From: Undibacterium sp. KW1
Lineage (GTDB): Bacteria > Pseudomonadota > Gammaproteobacteria > Burkholderiales > Burkholderiaceae_D
Direction of reading: 5' to 3'
NCBI RefSeq assembly: GCF_009937955.1
Contig: NZ_AP018439.1
Span: 5,952,001-6,016,000 of the forward strand
Length of the DNA: 64,000 nt
Shown here: one piece after another, positions 49,501 to 54,489 of the stretch
How the letters are laid out: every line of letters begins with the position of its first letter
How positions within the stretch are numbered: the stretch's first letter is position 1
The notes under the pieces: generated by a model
Database searches by the model: none
What the model was told of the DNA's origin: nothing
Seen by the model: the letters and a program-made list of their open reading frames with translations, nothing else
Made by a program: the position numbers and the translations under genes

Positions 49501-49953
49501 GTGCGCAGCATTTACTATAGGCCGAAGACCTATCAACACAGAGGTACGGGCGCAGGAAAAACTGCTTGCAAGCAGACTTCGTTACGCAAATGAACGGAAA
49601 TAGAACGACACGTGCTCTCTGCTCTTACTCTGTTGTTTGGGTTTCTTATTTTATTTCTAGATCGCAGCGCTTCCTCGCTGTAGTAGGGTGCGCCGTGCGC
49701 ACCGTTTTACCATCGCTCAATCGTTCTCTTAGTCACGCCACACGGTGCATCAACCAACGACTCTAGGCTCCAGCCTGCGCTGGAGCGACGAAGTTTCGGC
49801 TAATTCTTTCATAACCTCGACGGCTAGCTACTAGCATTCCCGTTGCTGTTGATGAAGTATTGGAGCAGTAGCTGGAGGCTACCGTGCTGGCGCATACAGC
49901 GGTGTTCATGGATCAAGGTAGATGCTTGCCTGGATTGCAGGAAAATGCGGACG
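49501..49953. other. gene-free chromosomal flank with repeat fragments
   Basis: About 450 bp without a credible gene between the rdgC terminator and the mobile element. It contains an ACACAGAGG motif, a GGTGCGCCGTGCGCACC palindrome at about 49687-49703, and the GCTCCAGCCTGCGCTGGAGC palindrome at 49767. It reads as a pile-up of small dispersed repeats. Confidence 0.6.
49767..49786. repeat. REP-like short palindrome
   Basis: GCTCCAGCCTGCGCTGGAGC followed by GACG. A sister copy, GCTCCTGCTTGCGCAGGAGC followed by GACG, is at 60881-60900. Arm changes are compensated, which points to selection on the hairpin. Confidence 0.6.
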
Positions 49954-49990: not shown

Positions 49991-50010
49991 ACTGGCGGAG
50001 CGGACGGGGC
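49991..50010. repeat. attachment site, distal copy
   Basis: Exact 20-bp copy of the tRNA-Asp 3' end region (ACTGGCGGAGCGGACGGGGC); homology stops at once on both sides. Confidence 0.88.
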
Positions 50011-50215
50011 ACTGTAAAAATCTCACCCTCCGAATTTTTCCACCAATAGAATCAAGGACTTAGCAACATTATTAATAAAAGGAAACAGAAAAACTCTTAC
50101 CATTTCTGTTACCACTGCTAAACGAGGAAGAATTTTAGCAGTGTTTCTACAATTATTGTATCTATCAAATAAAAAATGCACTTACTCACTTTTTCATAGG
50201 GCATTCCCTATTGTG
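50011..50215. other. AT-rich gap downstream of the toxin gene
   Basis: About 205 bp with no reading frame. Two hairpins are visible: CACTGCTAAA/TTTTAGCAGTG at about 50114-50149 and AGGG/CCCT just after the toxin stop. One may end toxin transcription. Confidence 0.4.
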
Positions 50216-50692
50216 CTAAATTTCCAACTCAGCATGATAATTTTGAAGGGTTGTGTGCCTATACTCAATGCTATTAAGAATATTTGAATCAGGCTTCCTT
50301 ACCGCACTTATGTATTTCTCAACATATTTCTCAAACTTCTGTGCAATATAAGGCTGCTTCGCCACCAGTTTATTATGCTCTTCAGCAGGAATCTTAAATA
50401 CTTCTGTCGAAATGTAGGCGGGATCTGAAATGAGAAGTGCTTTTGAAAAATCTAACCCTTTGCCATATGGAGGAGCATTACCGACTGAGGGATTTTTTTT
50501 TGTTAAGTATGCAGCCTTATGCCTAATATTGCTTCTGAGTGGTATTCCAAAAGTCAAATTTTTTATAGAAATGAGAACTATTCCATACCCTCTAATTTTG
50601 CCAGCTTCCCATACTCCACCAATATTATCAAGAACCTGAACCAAATGGGTATGATCTGCATAAAAAGTTGAATCAAGTTTAAGAAGCTGCAT
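50216..50692 (-). CDS. type III toxin-antitoxin system RNase toxin, ToxN/AbiQ superfamily, TenpN-like
   Basis: A 158-residue basic endoribonuclease candidate. The pattern matches TenpN/ToxN toxins: an N-terminal LDSTFYADHTHLVQVLD, the core RGYGIVLISIKNLTFGIPLRSNIRHKAAY, GLDFSKALLI, and a C-terminal helix pair ending TTLQNYHAEL. The decisive evidence is context: directly upstream lie a strong promoter, two direct RNA repeats and a terminator placed before the toxin ATG, the defining layout of type III systems, in which read-through sets toxin dose. Known members abort phage infection or stabilise plasmids. Assignment to TenpIN rather than CptIN or ToxIN is by motif memory. Confidence 0.82.
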   Translation of the reverse strand: MQLLKLDSTFYADHTHLVQVLDNIGGVWEAGKIRGYGIVLISIKNLTFGIPLRSNIRHKAAYLTKKNPSVGNAPPYGKGLDFSKALLISDPAYISTEVFKIPAEEHNKLVAKQPYIAQKFEKYVEKYISAVRKPDSNILNSIEYRHTTLQNYHAELEI

Positions 50693-50712
50693 GAATATGC
50701 TTTCGATAGACC

Positions 50713-50734
50713 AAAAAAAACCCCTTTCGGGGCA
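50713..50734 (-). terminator. attenuating terminator between antitoxin repeats and toxin
   Basis: Short CCCC/GGGG stem with GAAA tetraloop followed by eight T on the minus strand, 21 bases before the toxin ATG. Confidence 0.85.
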
Positions 50735-50862
50735 TTTTTTGGCAGTTATTTCTGTTTGAATATTTTTACTATTTTACGTGGGGCTATTCTACCGCCACAA
50801 TAATTCTGTTTGGAGACTTATATATTTTACGTGGGGCGTTCCTACCTCCACAAACTGCAAGA
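50713..50862 (-). ncRNA. type III antitoxin RNA with two 53-nt repeats
   Basis: Transcript of about 150 nt between the promoter at 50865-50893 and a terminator. Repeat 1 is 50801-50853 and repeat 2 about 50748-50800; both hold TTGTGG(A/C)GGTAG, then GCCCCACGTAAAATA, then CAAACAGAA. GTGG and CCAC can pair in each unit, giving the compact fold that inhibits the toxin, and the A-rich part is the expected processing site. The terminator (CCCC-GAAA-GGGG and eight T, 50713-50734) separates it from the toxin gene. Confidence 0.82.
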
Positions 50863-50864
50863 GA

Positions 50865-50893
50865 ACTATGCCACATAAACAAAACATTGTCAA
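50865..50893 (-). promoter_or_regulatory. promoter of the antitoxin RNA and toxin
   Basis: Minus strand TTGACA (50888-50893), exactly 17 bp, CATAGT (50865-50870). It is the only strong promoter ahead of the repeat array. Confidence 0.75.
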
Positions 50894-50983
50894 GTCTAAT
50901 TGGCATACCAAGTTATAACGAACTCTCGAAAAAAAAAGCACTATTGAAAAGTAATGAATTCCTATTATTTTTTGTTCCTTGTA

Positions 50984-51165
50984 AAAAACCAGTCATTTTG
51001 ACTGGCTTTTTATTTATATCACATACTTGACAATCTAAAGATTTTCAATATAAATATGATAACAGTTTCCCTACTGGTGATTCAATCATAATTGAAAATC
51101 GTAGATTGTCAAGACAGAATAAAGATTAAATTGCCTTAACGAAAATTGTTAAGGCAATTTTTTTA
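50984..51165. promoter_or_regulatory. inverted repeat with face-to-face promoters between two terminators
   Basis: Arms at 51026-51049 and 51091-51113 are inverted copies starting CTTGACAATCTA with one mismatch and one bulge. Each arm supplies TTGACA with a 16-bp-spaced -10: TATAAA (51049-51054) on plus, TATGAT (51085-51090) on minus. Plus transcripts would end at the terminator 51128-51165 (AAATTGCCTTAAC stem), minus transcripts at 50984-51013 (CCAGTCA stem). Two convergent RNAs of about 100 nt are predicted; none has a reading frame. Confidence 0.5.
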
Positions 51166-51204
51166 TTCGTCAATTAAGTTTCTCGGTTCGGAATATTGCC
51201 AATG

Positions 51205-51560
51205 TAGATGGTGGACAATAGATAGCCCAGGTTAAAAATATTCAGTAAATACTGATAACTGCAAATGGTGAACCTCCACAATAAGCGACATTATTTTTTT
51301 AATGAAGTGGCTAGAACGGTAATCAAGCAAAGCCACAGGGAAGTCAATCAGAGGAACCCCGCTTGAGCAGTATTAAGACTGTGAATCCTCGAAACTGGAA
51401 AGCTTAATAAATTTCAGTCTGGTGCTATGTGGTTAGCCCCAGTAAAGACCTCAAGTTCAAATTTTTAAAATTTGTCCTTTGGGTAAGTCTTTGCTGGAAC
51501 CGTGTGATAGCACGGTGAACAGCAAAGACACAAACAAGACCGATAGGTCTTGTTTACAGC
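51205..51560 (+). ncRNA. candidate structured noncoding RNA of unknown class
   Basis: A GC-richer island in the AT-rich element with no reading frame. Helices seen: 51307-51312/51331-51336, 51323-51328/51361-51366, 51351-51355/51386-51390, 51376-51381/51415-51420 and 51394-51398/51439-51443, each interleaved with the next, as in serial pseudoknots. Then a hairpin 51487-51496/51520-51529 with inner stem CCGTG/CACGG, and a 10-bp hairpin 51532-51541/51546-51555 with GATA loop. 51444-51449 could compete for GTCTTT. Strand is inferred from nothing stronger than the order of helices. Confidence 0.45.
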
Positions 51561-51668
51561 ATTTATATTATTATTTTTATATTTATTTATATTAATACCA
51601 TATCAGCAAAGAAGAACTCGTTAGAGATTTACGATAGTAAATAAAAAGGGAACGGCTAAAAAATTACA

Positions 51669-52814
51669 TTATTTTTTGTATTTTTGGGAATTATCAGGGG
51701 TTTTACCAAACTTTTTTTCATACCATTTCAAAGTATCAGCAAGGTCCTGAACTCTTTCCCTTTCCTTATCTAATTCTTTATTCAATTCTTCAGTTTTAGC
51801 CTTTTGTTCTGTAATCTGGTTACTCACATTCGCAACTCGTTTATCAGCCCATTCCTTCGCTTGTTTTTTATATTCTTCAGCTTTCTTTTTTTCTTTTTCA
51901 GCAGATTTTTTAATCTGCTCCAATTCTTCGGTCACTTCAACACTTGGCTTATGCCAAGCAGATAAAACACCCGTCATTACACTACCAATTTTTGAACCGA
52001 AACTTAGAGCATTTTTTTCTGCTAATTCTATTATTTCATTCGCTTTATTTTCTGCTTTGGCAATTCCTGCTTTATAACCCTTTTTCATATATTGTTTTGC
52101 TACTGCCTTGGCATCTGCAAAAAATCTAGCTTGTGCTTTTTCTGCTTGCCACTCACCGCGAGTTAATCTTCTACGACCTGGGCCTAACCTGGTTAATCCG
52201 TGTTTCAATGCTACCTTATTAGAATAATCGTCTTGAATATGTCGCATTGATTCAATATAGGCAAGATTTTGAGCACCAGCATTTTTACCTTCTTTTTTAG
52301 CTACATTTTTGGCTTTAATACCTTCGTGTATATCGTCAAATCGTTCCCCAATTCTGGGCACTACTGTGAAATGTAAATGTGGGTGTGATTCGTCCTCATG
52401 AACAACAACACTTTTTAATCTGTCACCATATTTATTTTTTAACCATTTCAAAGTATCTTCTGCAAATTCTGGGAAACTATCTTCCATTTCACGAGGAAGA
52501 CTTGCCACCCCGACCAGAGCAACCATACCGTCTTTTCTTAATTTTCTGCCAATAGAATCGGTTGCACTTTCTGCCCACTCTTCTGCCATAGGCAACACTT
52601 CCATAGGTGGAACACCGTAAAGTATTCCTGGTTTTCGTGGTTCTTGGATATGGGGACAAGCTTCTTCTATACGAGCTTGCTCCTCCAGAATTTGACGAAG
52701 ACTTTTAACTTGTTTTGTTGTGGTTATTTTGTTACCGTTCTTTTTGGTAACTGTTTTAGTTTGCTTTGAACCTTCACGAGCATAAGCATCAAAATGGATA
52801 AATTGATAGGACAT
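51669..52814 (-). CDS. MobV-family relaxase (Pre/Mob)
   Basis: A 381-residue plasmid-type mobilization relaxase. Residues 139-148 read HEDESHPHLH, an exact fit to the MobV metal-binding motif HxDExxPHxH; the histidines would hold the metal at the nicking site. The N-terminal catalytic domain spans about 1-220 and the C-terminal 90 residues are a charged coiled coil (about 290-370), as in other MobV proteins. It should nick an oriT lying just upstream and needs a conjugative helper. No RNA or Rep gene accompanies it. Confidence 0.88.
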   Translation of the reverse strand: MSYQFIHFDAYAREGSKQTKTVTKKNGNKITTTKQVKSLRQILEEQARIEEACPHIQEPRKPGILYGVPPMEVLPMAEEWAESATDSIGRKLRKDGMVALVGVASLPREMEDSFPEFAEDTLKWLKNKYGDRLKSVVVHEDESHPHLHFTVVPRIGERFDDIHEGIKAKNVAKKEGKNAGAQNLAYIESMRHIQDDYSNKVALKHGLTRLGPGRRRLTRGEWQAEKAQARFFADAKAVAKQYMKKGYKAGIAKAENKANEIIELAEKNALSFGSKIGSVMTGVLSAWHKPSVEVTEELEQIKKSAEKEKKKAEEYKKQAKEWADKRVANVSNQITEQKAKTEELNKELDKERERVQDLADTLKWYEKKFGKTPDNSQKYKK

Positions 52815-52889
52815 ATTATTATATTTTTGTTATTATTTAATATATCTTTTTCTATCTCCTTGTCAACGAATCGGCTTTTAATTTTGCTT

Positions 52890-52909
52890 GTATAGTGAAC
52901 CGACTATAC
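52890..52909. promoter_or_regulatory. candidate MobV oriT
   Basis: Inverted repeat GTATAGT-GAACCG-ACTATAC, 76 bp upstream of the relaxase start. On the relaxase strand AGTATAGT followed by a short spacer and ACTATAC resembles the AGTATAGTGTG...ATACTTTA nick-site hairpins of MobV plasmids such as pMV158. Confidence 0.5.
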
Positions 52910-53001
52910 TTATTGCATAAGTGTCGGTCCTGCGGAGCTAAAACCAAATCAAAACCAACAGCCAAACCTTAAGGGTTTCACCCTTAAAATCCCGTTCCGA
53001 A

Positions 53002-53027
53002 TAAAAAAATCCAGCTCAAGGCTGGAT
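53002..53027 (-). terminator. integrase terminator
   Basis: Arms ATCCAGC and GCTGGAT with a 5-nt loop followed by seven T on the minus strand, immediately after the integrase stop. Confidence 0.85.
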
Positions 53028-53033
53028 AATTTT

Positions 53034-54335
53034 TTAATCGGTTTGAGGTAATTTTTTCATCATTTCACTTTCAGGAATGAGCTTTACCGTTCGCAATAAT
53101 TTAAGTTGTTGCTGGAGAATAATTTCAGCCAATTTATCCACACTAAATTTATTTGAGTAAGTTGCTACATTCACCGATTCAATTTCGTGCCCAAAAAATT
53201 GGCACCGTGGTTCATAAGCAATTTCATTTTTCATAAAATAATCATTCAGAAATTTTCTGAGTGAATGAAAAACCAACTTACCCCGATTAATTTTTAATTC
53301 AGCCAAATGTCGAGCAAATTTTTTACCGACTGCATTTCCTGAGCCCTTACCTTCACGACTCACATATCTGAAAATAAAATCCTCTTTTGAATCAAGGTAA
53401 TTTTTGAAATCATTATCAAAAATCTGACTCGGTAAAGGAATCTCTCTTTTTCCTGCTGAAGTTTTAGAATCGCGAATTACAATAAAATTATTATAGTGTT
53501 CCGAAATTTGAAATTGCGATTTTGTCAGTGTCGTTATTTCTGAAATTCTGCACCCAGTAATTAACCCTAACAGCAACACATAATAATAATCAGGGTCAGA
53601 TTGTTTCTGCTCCTTATAATAATCACTGGTAAAAATCTGTTTAATTTCCTCTACTTCAAAAATCAAATAACCGTCTGACAATTTTTGTCTTTTCGTCATT
53701 AATGACATATTTTCAGCAGGATTTTTCTGATTCAAGAGATACCCCTGTTTAATTGCAAAATTTAATAATGCTTTAATGTAGCCAATTTTCCCGTCAATGG
53801 TCCGAGGAACATTTCCCTTACTTGCTAAATATTCTTGAAATCGGGTTATATCTCCAACCTGAATTTCAGAGATATAACATTTCAATTTAAAGAAAGCTTC
53901 AAATTCTTTTACGGTATTTTTGTGAGCCAATATCGTGGCAGGTTTGACTTTTTTCAGTAAAAAATATTTGTCTAATAATTCCAACAGAGTCAGGGATTTC
54001 GTAGAAGGAAATGGACTGGCTCGCCCAGGTCCTTCCGATATATGGGGTTGCTTTTGACTTTGATTTTGACTTTCTCGCATAAATGCCATTGCTTCTAATA
54101 ATCGCTGGTGGTCTTCAGGACCATCCGATTTAGCAATACCCCTAGACAGGTCCAGTTCGTATTTTTTTATGTTTTTGAAGTCAATATCCATTTGAATGCA
54201 TTCAAGTAGCCTAGAGGCTCTTATGATAGCAATTTGACGGTCTGCTGTATGTAATGACCGTTTAAATTGCTTACCGTGAATACGGGTATGGAAATAATAA
54301 GAAGAATTTCGGAAATAAACTGGCAAATTGAGCAT
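53034..54335 (-). CDS. tyrosine-type site-specific integrase
   Basis: A 433-residue tyrosine recombinase. Catalytic residues visible: Arg263 in TGCRISEI, Lys291, His357 and Arg360 in FHSLRKFLND, His383 in FGHEIES and Tyr393 in NVATYS. An N-terminal arm-binding region and a SAM-like core-binding domain (about 112-210) precede the catalytic domain. It starts 75 bp from the tRNA-Asp end of the element, transcribed away from it, and presumably recombines the 20-bp repeat. Residue 1-60 are rich in basic amino acids. Confidence 0.93.
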   Translation of the reverse strand: MLNLPVYFRNSSYYFHTRIHGKQFKRSLHTADRQIAIIRASRLLECIQMDIDFKNIKKYELDLSRGIAKSDGPEDHQRLLEAMAFMRESQNQSQKQPHISEGPGRASPFPSTKSLTLLELLDKYFLLKKVKPATILAHKNTVKEFEAFFKLKCYISEIQVGDITRFQEYLASKGNVPRTIDGKIGYIKALLNFAIKQGYLLNQKNPAENMSLMTKRQKLSDGYLIFEVEEIKQIFTSDYYKEQKQSDPDYYYVLLLGLITGCRISEITTLTKSQFQISEHYNNFIVIRDSKTSAGKREIPLPSQIFDNDFKNYLDSKEDFIFRYVSREGKGSGNAVGKKFARHLAELKINRGKLVFHSLRKFLNDYFMKNEIAYEPRCQFFGHEIESVNVATYSNKFSVDKLAEIILQQQLKLLRTVKLIPESEMMKKLPQTD

Positions 54336-54371
54336 AGATTGCTACCAAATTTGCTACCAGCCCAAAATGAA

Positions 54372-54404
54372 AAGGTCTTATAACTCATTGAATTATAAGA
54401 CCTT
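54372..54404 (-). terminator. element-borne terminator for the tRNA operon
   Basis: Perfect 12-bp arms AAGGTCTTATAA/TTATAAGACCTT, loop of 9, then TTTTC on the minus strand, right after the tRNA-Asp 3' end. It may replace the original terminator displaced to 49954. Confidence 0.5.
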
Positions 54405-54410
54405 CTTAAT

Positions 54411-54430
54411 ACTGGCGGAGCGGACGGGGC
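54411..54430. repeat. attachment site, tRNA-proximal copy
   Basis: ACTGGCGGAGCGGACGGGGC; bases 54413-54430 are the 3' end of tRNA-Asp including CCA, so insertion keeps the tRNA intact. Confidence 0.88.
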
Positions 54431-54489
54431 TCGAACCCGCGACCCCCGGCGTGACAGGCCGGTATTCTAACCAACTGAACTACCACTCC
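54413..54489 (-). tRNA. tRNA-Asp (GTC)
   Basis: 77 nt with encoded CCA. The acceptor stem is GGAGTGG against CCGCTCC, the anticodon loop is CTGTCAC (anticodon GTC), and the T-loop GTTCGAG is intact. Its 3' end is the element's integration site. Confidence 0.97.

What the first reader, a model, noticed from the sequence alone, without database searches (positions are those of the whole stretch)
49991..54430. Compact 4.4-kb mobilizable element in tRNA-Asp built from integrase, MobV relaxase and a type III toxin-antitoxin
The exact 20-bp direct repeat, the integrase next to the tRNA end, the relaxase and the sharp drop in GC all agree on one inserted unit. MobV relaxases are best known from small rolling-circle plasmids; here one sits with a tyrosine integrase and an RNA-based toxin-antitoxin but no Rep, excisionase or transfer genes. 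The result is one of the smallest plausible integrative mobilizable elements, with phage defence or element retention as the cargo role.
Basis: partly seen in the sequence, partly recalled or inferred. Interest (0 to 1): 0.8.

Follow-up and report, generated by a model that had tools for sequence, protein, structure and literature searches.

The report
Tiny mobile element carrying unknown RNA
A 4.4-kb piece of mobile DNA sits in a bacterial tRNA gene; the element is of a known type, but it also seems to encode a large, intricately folded RNA that fits no catalogued RNA family and is shared with other, unrelated transferable elements.

Summary
A 4,420-bp, 35% GC insert lies between exact 20-bp repeats at the 3' end of tRNA-Asp; six of six same-genus loci compared show the empty site. 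It carries a tyrosine integrase, a MOBV relaxase with a conserved oriT-like block, and a TenpIN type III toxin-antitoxin. As an integrative mobilizable element (IME) it is a new member of a known kind (compare Tn5520, 4.7 kb). TenpIN is cargo, not found in the closest relative.

With the window it is found in 10 loci (one only in part): five small IMEs and five loci beside other conjugation-type genes. Over eight aligned copies 98.2% of pair cells form standard pairs and 21 of 28 pairs, including all six of a pseudoknot, change on both sides. A downstream segment can pair with either of two partners, as in a switch. It reaches no Rfam 15 threshold, and blastn found it in no record of 72,556 plasmids (four copies tried) or 50,697 phages (two tried). 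Transcription and function are inferred, not shown.

The parts
49991..50010 (.). left copy of the 20-bp attachment repeat
54411..54430 (.). right copy of the 20-bp attachment repeat, overlapping the 3' end of tRNA-Asp
   Evidence: empty site in six of six loci compared
54413..54489 (-). tRNA-Asp (gtc), integration target, left intact
53034..54335 (-). tyrosine integrase, 433 aa
   Evidence: PF13102 1.7e-11, PF00589 3.3e-7; phrog_1 3.4e-35
52887..52937 (-). oriT-like block upstream of mob (GGACCG..CTTATG..AAGTATAGTCGGTTCACTATAC), conserved in four IMEs with an invariant ATAGTCGG and TCACTA; likeness to the pMV158 oriT is recalled
51669..52814 (-). MOBV relaxase, 381 aa
   Evidence: PF01076 33.3 bits over its 25.5 cut-off; NF041497 53 bits, below its cut-off of 100
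51166..51665 (+). structured RNA, about 500 nt; both ends are estimates, expression not shown
51304..51432 (+). RNA core domain: helices P1, P3, P4, P5 and pseudoknot P2 (51323-51328 with 51361-51366)
   Evidence: CM hit 139.6 bits (the window is in the training set); covariation
51439..51529 (+). RNA switch domain: X 51487-51497 can pair with A 51439-51449 or with B 51520-51529; hairpin P8 51499-51516
51615..51650 (+). RNA 3' domain: small hairpin P9 and hairpin P10 (TTTACGATAGTAAA at 51628) followed by an A-rich run; the stretch that BLAST finds in other genera
51027..51112 (.). two promoter-like sites facing each other: + TTGACA-16-TATAAA (51027-51054, read by eye, not in the scan) and - TTGACA-16-TATGAT (51112-51085)
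   Evidence: sequence; the - site is in the scan; similar pairs seen by eye in L010, L011, L042, L048
51128..51160 (+). terminator-like hairpin with T-tract just upstream of the RNA (attenuator or end of a short RNA)
50865..50893 (-). probable TenpI promoter TTGACA-17-CATAGT
   Evidence: consensus scan; 21 such sites found in the unit, 14.7 expected
50750..50853 (-). TenpI antitoxin repeats, 53 nt x 1.9
   Evidence: each copy folds a small hairpin (z -2.8 and -1.4)
50720..50733 (-). terminator-like site between TenpI and tenpN
50216..50692 (-). TenpN toxin, 158 aa
   Evidence: NF047358 128.8 bits, cut-off 90

Best explanation
The segment is a 4.42-kb integrative mobilizable element. Shown by sequence: the tyrosine-integrase gene and the repeat-bounded insertion in tRNA-Asp, a MOBV relaxase with its oriT-like block, TenpIN cargo, and a third conserved module, a ~500-nt structured RNA with a pseudoknotted core, a segment that can pair with either of two partners, and a conserved 3' hairpin. 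Inferred: the integrase excises a circle, the relaxase nicks the oriT-like site, and a helper type IV system (the same genome has an IVB/IncI-like one at about 5.62-5.65 Mb) exports the strand. Inferred, about 0.3 likely: the RNA is the element's protein-free maintenance or replication control. It would be transcribed on the + strand, toggle between A:X and X:B pairing, and set whether the excised circle is primed for copying or held silent, much as ColE1 RNA II works (recalled). A regulatory RNA that controls excision or transfer by the same switch is about as likely. The confidence below is for the element plus a real structured RNA, not for the RNA's function.
For: Element: repeats, GC, genes and empty site. 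RNA: z -5.8 on +, -4.3 on - for 51180-51580; an nhmmer model of 4 loci hits L042 at 5.9e-38 and L049 at 5e-30. In 8 sequences 98.2% of cells pair against 70.2% in shuffles and 33-43% when slid by 1 to 3 columns; 21 of 28 pairs change on both sides; score 0.844 against 0.271, reached by 0 of 500 shuffles (one of its five measures, further pair types, is reached by 1 of 500). A member outside that alignment (L060) keeps P1, PK, P3, P4 and P5 with new pairs. Strand: G-U 7 against A-C 1 in the core of 6 sequences, 5 against 0 in further hand-placed helices. Switch: A:X mean 9.6 of 10 pairs in 7 members, X:B 9.3 of 10 in 6 members, against 8.0 and 7.5 for partners taken from other members. Module role: present in 5 of 5 small IMEs that I delimited (4.4-5.6 kb), whose cargo and integrases differ. 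Possible helper: DotA/TraY and DotM/IcmP over cut-off in the same genome.
Against: No expression data. Fold energy does not settle the strand: in ten copies the + z is the lower in 7, and for the window it is -5.26 on + and -5.29 on -; in L010 4 of 60 shuffles fold as well. The RNA is not tied to MobV: nhmmer and the model found none in five loci with more distant MobV relaxases (L036-L040) or in five MobV plasmids (L031-L035). The replication reading lacks direct support: no plasmid of 72,556 holds the RNA by blastn, though plasmids could not be searched with the covariance model, and an active origin inside the chromosome would need to be silent there. By estimated start points the facing - transcript would overlap the + RNA by only about 18 nt, unlike ColE1 RNA I (recalled). 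In L048, L049, L056 and L060 the RNA is not next to a relaxase gene. The likely helper region of the same genome lacks it (one CM match in G000). A:X is weak in L042 (91 of 300 shuffles as good) and X:B in L049 (109 of 300). Segments X, A and B were picked by hand; L011 and L048 are left out of the A count and L048, L049 and L060 of the B count.
Confidence: 0.85

Rival explanations
1. The RNA is a regulator, cis or trans, of excision, transfer or host genes: the switch changes between A:X and X:B when a ligand, protein, antisense RNA or host state changes, and so turns int or mob on or off.
For: Bistable segment; facing promoter-like sites and a terminator-like hairpin upstream; no other ORF of 70 aa or more in the unit, so no obvious excisionase or repressor; in the five small IMEs the RNA converges on the relaxase gene.
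Against: The RNA is not a leader of any one conserved gene; the next gene differs in L048, L049, L056, L057 and L060. No regulatory target was tested.
Confidence: 0.35
2. The conserved structure acts as single-stranded DNA: a single-strand origin or ssDNA promoter (sso/ssi type, recalled) that lets the host start second-strand synthesis after transfer.
For: It lies next to the relaxase in 5 of 5 small IMEs; promoter-like boxes sit in a near-palindrome in the window (51027-51112); fold energies of both strands are low.
Against: G-U over A-C in the + reading points to RNA of the + strand, while by likeness to pMV158 (recalled) the transferred strand would be the - strand. The near-palindrome is not kept in L010 or L042 (by eye). 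In L048, L049, L056 and L060 the structure is not beside a relaxase gene.
Confidence: 0.1
3. The RNA is a defence or anti-defence RNA carried as cargo, as TenpIN is.
For: DNA methylase genes lie near it in L048, L049 and L056; TenpIN in the window.
Against: In five small IMEs the other cargo changes while the RNA stays, so it behaves as core. Two copies searched by blastn found no phage record.
Confidence: 0.2
4. The element is an ordinary IME and the intergenic conservation is only shared ancestry of non-functional DNA.
For: The nearest copy (L009) is 94% identical over 51305-53043.
Against: Pairs covary across copies beside unrelated relaxases, a pattern that drift does not give; slid structures fall to 33-43% paired.
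Confidence: 0.03

Closest known systems
Tn5520 (Bacteroides fragilis IME, 4.7 kb)
   Same: Single tyrosine integrase plus MobV relaxase, minimal size (PMC5704250, passages)
   Different: Tn5520 enters AT-rich sites and has no cargo; this one uses tRNA-Asp, carries TenpIN, and has the structured RNA. Whether Tn5520 holds such an RNA was not tested.
TenpIN type III toxin-antitoxin
   Same: Toxin family over the curated cut-off, tandem repeats, terminator-like site between (layout as in PMC5086642, passages)
   Different: 53-nt repeats, against 34-36 nt for the ToxIN examples in the passages; activity untested
ColE1 RNA II / RNA I primer system (recalled)
   Same: About 0.5-kb structured RNA, one segment with two alternative partners, a G-rich motif, a facing promoter near the 5' end
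   Different: No homology seen (the only Rfam RNAI hit is sub-threshold and lies over TenpI); antisense overlap would be about 18 nt; found in integrated elements and not, by blastn, on plasmids; origin function unknown
Large structured RNAs of mobile elements (GOLLD, ROOL, HEARO; recalled)
   Same: Large conserved bacterial RNA on mobile DNA, function open
   Different: No Rfam 15 family reaches its threshold over the RNA

Membership tests
Integrative mobilizable element | Own integrase and attachment-site repeats | tested here: met
Integrative mobilizable element | Empty target site in relatives | tested here: met
   six of six same-genus loci compared
Integrative mobilizable element | Own relaxase, no type IV secretion genes in the unit | tested here: met
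   only three ORFs of 70 aa or more lie in the unit: integrase, relaxase, TenpN
Integrative mobilizable element | Excision and mobilization shown | not testable with these tools
   needs PCR and mating
MOBV relaxase | Mob_Pre domain over Pfam cut-off | tested here: met
   33.3 against 25.5 bits
MOBV relaxase | NCBIfam MobV equivalog NF041497 over cut-off | tested here: not met
   53 against 100 bits: a divergent relative, filed by the Pfam domain only
Type III TA, TenpIN | Toxin over curated cut-off | tested here: met
   128.8 against 90 bits
Type III TA, TenpIN | Tandem antitoxin repeats and terminator before the toxin gene | tested here: met
Type III TA, TenpIN | Toxicity neutralised by the RNA | not tested
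   bench only
Any Rfam 15 RNA family | Match to a covariance model over the RNA at the curated score | tested here: not met
   window: no hit over 51166-51665 at E<=5. L042 and L049: none over the RNA at E<=2; L048: one, Ocean-V on the opposite strand, 27.7 bits against a threshold of 75, E 0.09. L010, L056, L057, L060: none over the RNA at E<=0.5. L009 and L011 were not run.
ColE1-type primer RNA (features recalled) | Mutually exclusive pairings of one segment | tested here: met
   both helices in 8 of 10 members (segments picked by hand)
ColE1-type primer RNA (features recalled) | Antisense RNA covering the 5' part of the primer | tested here: inconclusive
   facing promoter-like site present, estimated overlap only about 18 nt
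ColE1-type primer RNA (features recalled) | Primes replication; occurs on plasmids | tested here: inconclusive
   no blastn hit in 72,556 plasmids with four copies; priming not testable
sso / ssDNA promoter (features recalled) | Structure on the transferred strand | tested here: inconclusive
   G-U/A-C counts favour the + strand; transferred strand only inferred

The most novel reading that the evidence does not exclude
A previously undescribed class of ~0.5-kb bistable, pseudoknotted RNA is a third core module of integrative elements, next to integrase and relaxase. It gives elements without Rep or excisionase a protein-free control of replication or maintenance of the excised circle, and it is exchanged between small mobilizable elements and larger conjugative ones.
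Probability: 0.3. Interest if true: 0.88.

Novelty: new variant of a known kind. Interest (0 to 1): 0.7.

Why it matters
The element is a tidy new MOBV IME, probably of Undibacterium. The RNA matters more: a covariation-supported structured RNA outside Rfam, kept by elements with only two or three other conserved parts and shared with elements that have unrelated relaxases. How excised IMEs are maintained is headed an unexplored world in the 2017 review (PMC5704250, passages); a 4.4-kb element with three genes and one RNA makes the question directly testable.

Tried and rejected
Rfam at lax thresholds on the window and on seven other RNA-bearing loci gave no hit at a curated threshold over the RNA; one sub-threshold hit on the opposite strand in L048 is told in the membership table. 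MobV relatives on small plasmids (five of 70 matching records fetched) and five loci with more distant MobV relaxases carry no copy that nhmmer or the covariance model found. In IMG/VR the pattern-led searches found no relative of relaxase or integrase; the 22-base 3' motif is absent; of ten contigs matching a P1 pattern two scored E 0.1 and 0.62 and eight nothing with the model, and all ten were dropped. A motif scan of 321 class genomes hit only the own genome, and 1 of 61 in the family of G286, G286 itself. E. coli genomes were not searched.

Rejected: the RNA as leader of one gene (neighbours differ), as coding (longest stop-free run 49 codons in the + frames of 51020-51668), as a minus-strand 3' UTR of mobV (G-U over A-C). 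Minimum free energy was tried as a strand test and does not decide it (where L048 and L049 were folded with extra upstream sequence because the start motif was not found in them). MAFFT alignments A3, A4 and A8 misplace P4 or the A segment in some rows and were not counted. A6 was aligned by the covariance model R1, itself built from six of the eight sequences, so it leans towards that structure; A2, plain MAFFT of six, gives nearly the same result (94.6% paired, 20 of 28 pairs changed on both sides). L048 has only the 3' motif and a switch-like hairpin, and is not in the core counts. Genome surveys with the model score only a few candidates per genome and use stricter filters, so their counts are lower bounds.

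Literature: five searches bear on such an RNA. Three returned no paper, one listing (PMC8637638, on permuted group II introns, listing only), one search listed 15 of 174, none with the RNA term. Searches were on MobV IMEs, TenpIN and Tn5520. The library lacks most subscription papers and all preprints.
Full report
1. The element. Between an exact 20-bp repeat at 49991-50010 and 54411-54430 lies a 4,420-bp unit of 35.2% GC in 51.7% GC surroundings. The right copy is the 3' end of tRNA-Asp, which stays intact. In six same-genus loci (G004, G019, G032, G035, G027, G435) rdgC is followed by tRNA-Asp and tRNA-Val, and the joined flanks align across the junction in one piece, at 81% in G004 and 93-95% in the other five; six of six compared. 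In the five the spanning alignment reaches 37-64 nt into the left flank. This is a clean insertion. The genus is probably Undibacterium: a same-genus genome (G023) carries what looks like the element of U. jejuense contig NZ_JACOFV010000033 (L009, L016).

2. The genes, all on the - strand. Integrase 433 aa. MobV relaxase 381 aa: Pfam Mob_Pre over cut-off, NCBIfam MobV under its cut-off, so divergent. The motif HEDESHPHLHF is visible in the translation; that it is a MOBV signature is recalled. Upstream of mob a block with ATAGTCGG and TCACTA is conserved in four IMEs and is the likely oriT. TenpN is over its NCBIfam cut-off but has no Pfam, PADLOC or PDB-sequence match; a 53-nt repeat x 1.9 and a terminator-like site lie upstream, the layout described for type III systems (PMC5086642, passages). 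No other ORF of 70 aa or more lies in the unit, so no Rep, excisionase or transfer gene was found.

3. Relatives show what is core. L009 (U. jejuense, 4,900 bp, tRNA-Asp) keeps integrase and MobV but has other small ORFs in place of TenpIN. L010 (a MAG, 5,561 bp, tRNA-Asp) and L011 (Janthinobacterium, 5,234 bp, tRNA-Ser) keep MobV (71% and 65%) with another kind of integrase (the Pfam integrase score of L011 is just below cut-off). L042 (same genus, 4,885 bp, tRNA-His) has a distant Mob_Pre relaxase (96.8 bits) and a third kind of integrase. Across these five, cargo and integrase change.

4. The RNA. All five hold a conserved intergenic block just downstream of the relaxase gene, convergent with it. 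The same block occurs in five further loci beside other conjugation-type genes: L049 and L056 (TrwC-type MOBF relaxases), L057 (PF03432 relaxase, tRNA-Arg), L060 (DotA/TraY and a TrwB-like coupling protein; no relaxase identified), and, in part, L048 (a putative relaxase without a Pfam match). Ten loci in all, the window included: nine with the core, L048 with the 3' end only. It is not found in five loci with more distant MobV relaxases or in five MobV plasmids. By survey it is sparse: 4 of 245 genomes of the family and 4 of 399 of the order with the models, the own genome in each and two genomes shared; by BLAST 4 of 399 in the order and 3 of 43 in the genus. G286 (L048), found by BLAST, was missed by the model, so these are lower bounds.

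5. Structure. Core: P1, a pseudoknot P2 between the P1 loop and a downstream strand, P3, P4, P5. On a plain MAFFT alignment of six copies 94.6% of cells pair and 20 of 28 pairs change on both sides; on the model-aligned eight copies 98.2% and 21 of 28. All six pseudoknot pairs covary (UCAAGC/GCUUGA in the window, AGUUGG/CCAACU in L010, UUAAAC/GUUUAA in L011). L060, found afterwards, adds GUUGC/GCAAC in P1 and CUAGC/GCUAG in the pseudoknot; in the model's register one position of its P1 and one of its P5 do not pair. Downstream, segment X (GUCUUUGCUG) can pair with A upstream or B downstream. With X chosen by hand, the helix with A beats all but at most 6 of 300 shuffles in nine of ten members (not L042), and the helix with B all but at most 4 of 300 in nine of ten (not L049); both partners change together with X (7 members for A, 6 for B). 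The 3' end has hairpin P10, UUUAC/GUAAA in the window, AUAUUAAC/GUUAAUAU in L042 and GAUUAAC/GUUAAUC in L056, followed by an A-rich run.

6. Strand. Counting wobble pairs gives 7 G-U against 1 A-C in the core of six copies and 5 against 0 in further hand-placed helices, which points to RNA read from the + strand. Folding energies do not separate the strands: the + z is the lower in 7 of 10 copies, and for the window the two are equal. Promoter-like sites TTGACA-16-TAtaat precede the RNA; in the window two face each other at 51027-51112, followed by a hairpin with a T-tract. The scan finds 21 promoter-like sites in the unit where 14.7 are expected by chance, so these are weak evidence. Expression is not shown.

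7. What it may do. In the smallest elements three things persist: integrase, relaxase with oriT, and this RNA. The functions a mobile circle needs but these genes do not give are regulation of excision and maintenance of the circle. A bistable RNA could serve either. I put 0.3 on replication or maintenance control, 0.35 on regulation of excision or transfer, 0.2 on defence-type cargo, 0.1 on an ssDNA role; the rest is open. The same genome has a type IVB-like conjugation locus (DotA/TraY and DotM/IcmP over cut-off; a coupling protein over the PF12696 cut-off; regions) that could serve as helper. This is a guess; PF03135 (VirB4 family) is absent from the genome.

8. Known or new. The IME is a new member of a known kind (Tn5520 and other MobV IMEs; PMC5704250, passages only). 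The RNA reaches the threshold of none of the 4,227 Rfam families in the eight loci searched, and five literature searches found nothing on it; the library lacks most subscription papers and all preprints. Graded as a whole: a known kind of element with an undescribed RNA module; at the level of RNA families the RNA itself appears new.

Noticed in passing
G000:C1:5615000-5654000 (L102, L103): Type IVB/IncI-like conjugation genes (DotA/TraY, DotM/IcmP, a coupling protein) in the same genome: a possible helper, without a copy of the RNA.
   Followed up: partly
49525-49590 and 49682-49837: Intergenic sequence beside the element belongs to short interspersed repeats with many partial copies in this genome and its genus.
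   Followed up: no
51128-51160: Terminator-like hairpin between the promoter-like sites and the RNA in the window; by eye also in L010, L011, L042 and L048 and not at that place in L009, L056, L057 or L060: a short RNA or attenuator may be an optional part.
   Followed up: partly
L048 4626-5600, L049 5353-6225, L056 11221-13101: DNA methylase genes, probably of restriction-modification systems, lie near the RNA in three larger elements.
   Followed up: partly
L049:8487-9992, L056:7449-8195, L060:6390-7052: Pilin-like or secreted proteins near the RNA; L049 has a type IV pilin N-terminal motif, and L056 and L060 share a CPAGY.G stretch by eye.
   Followed up: no
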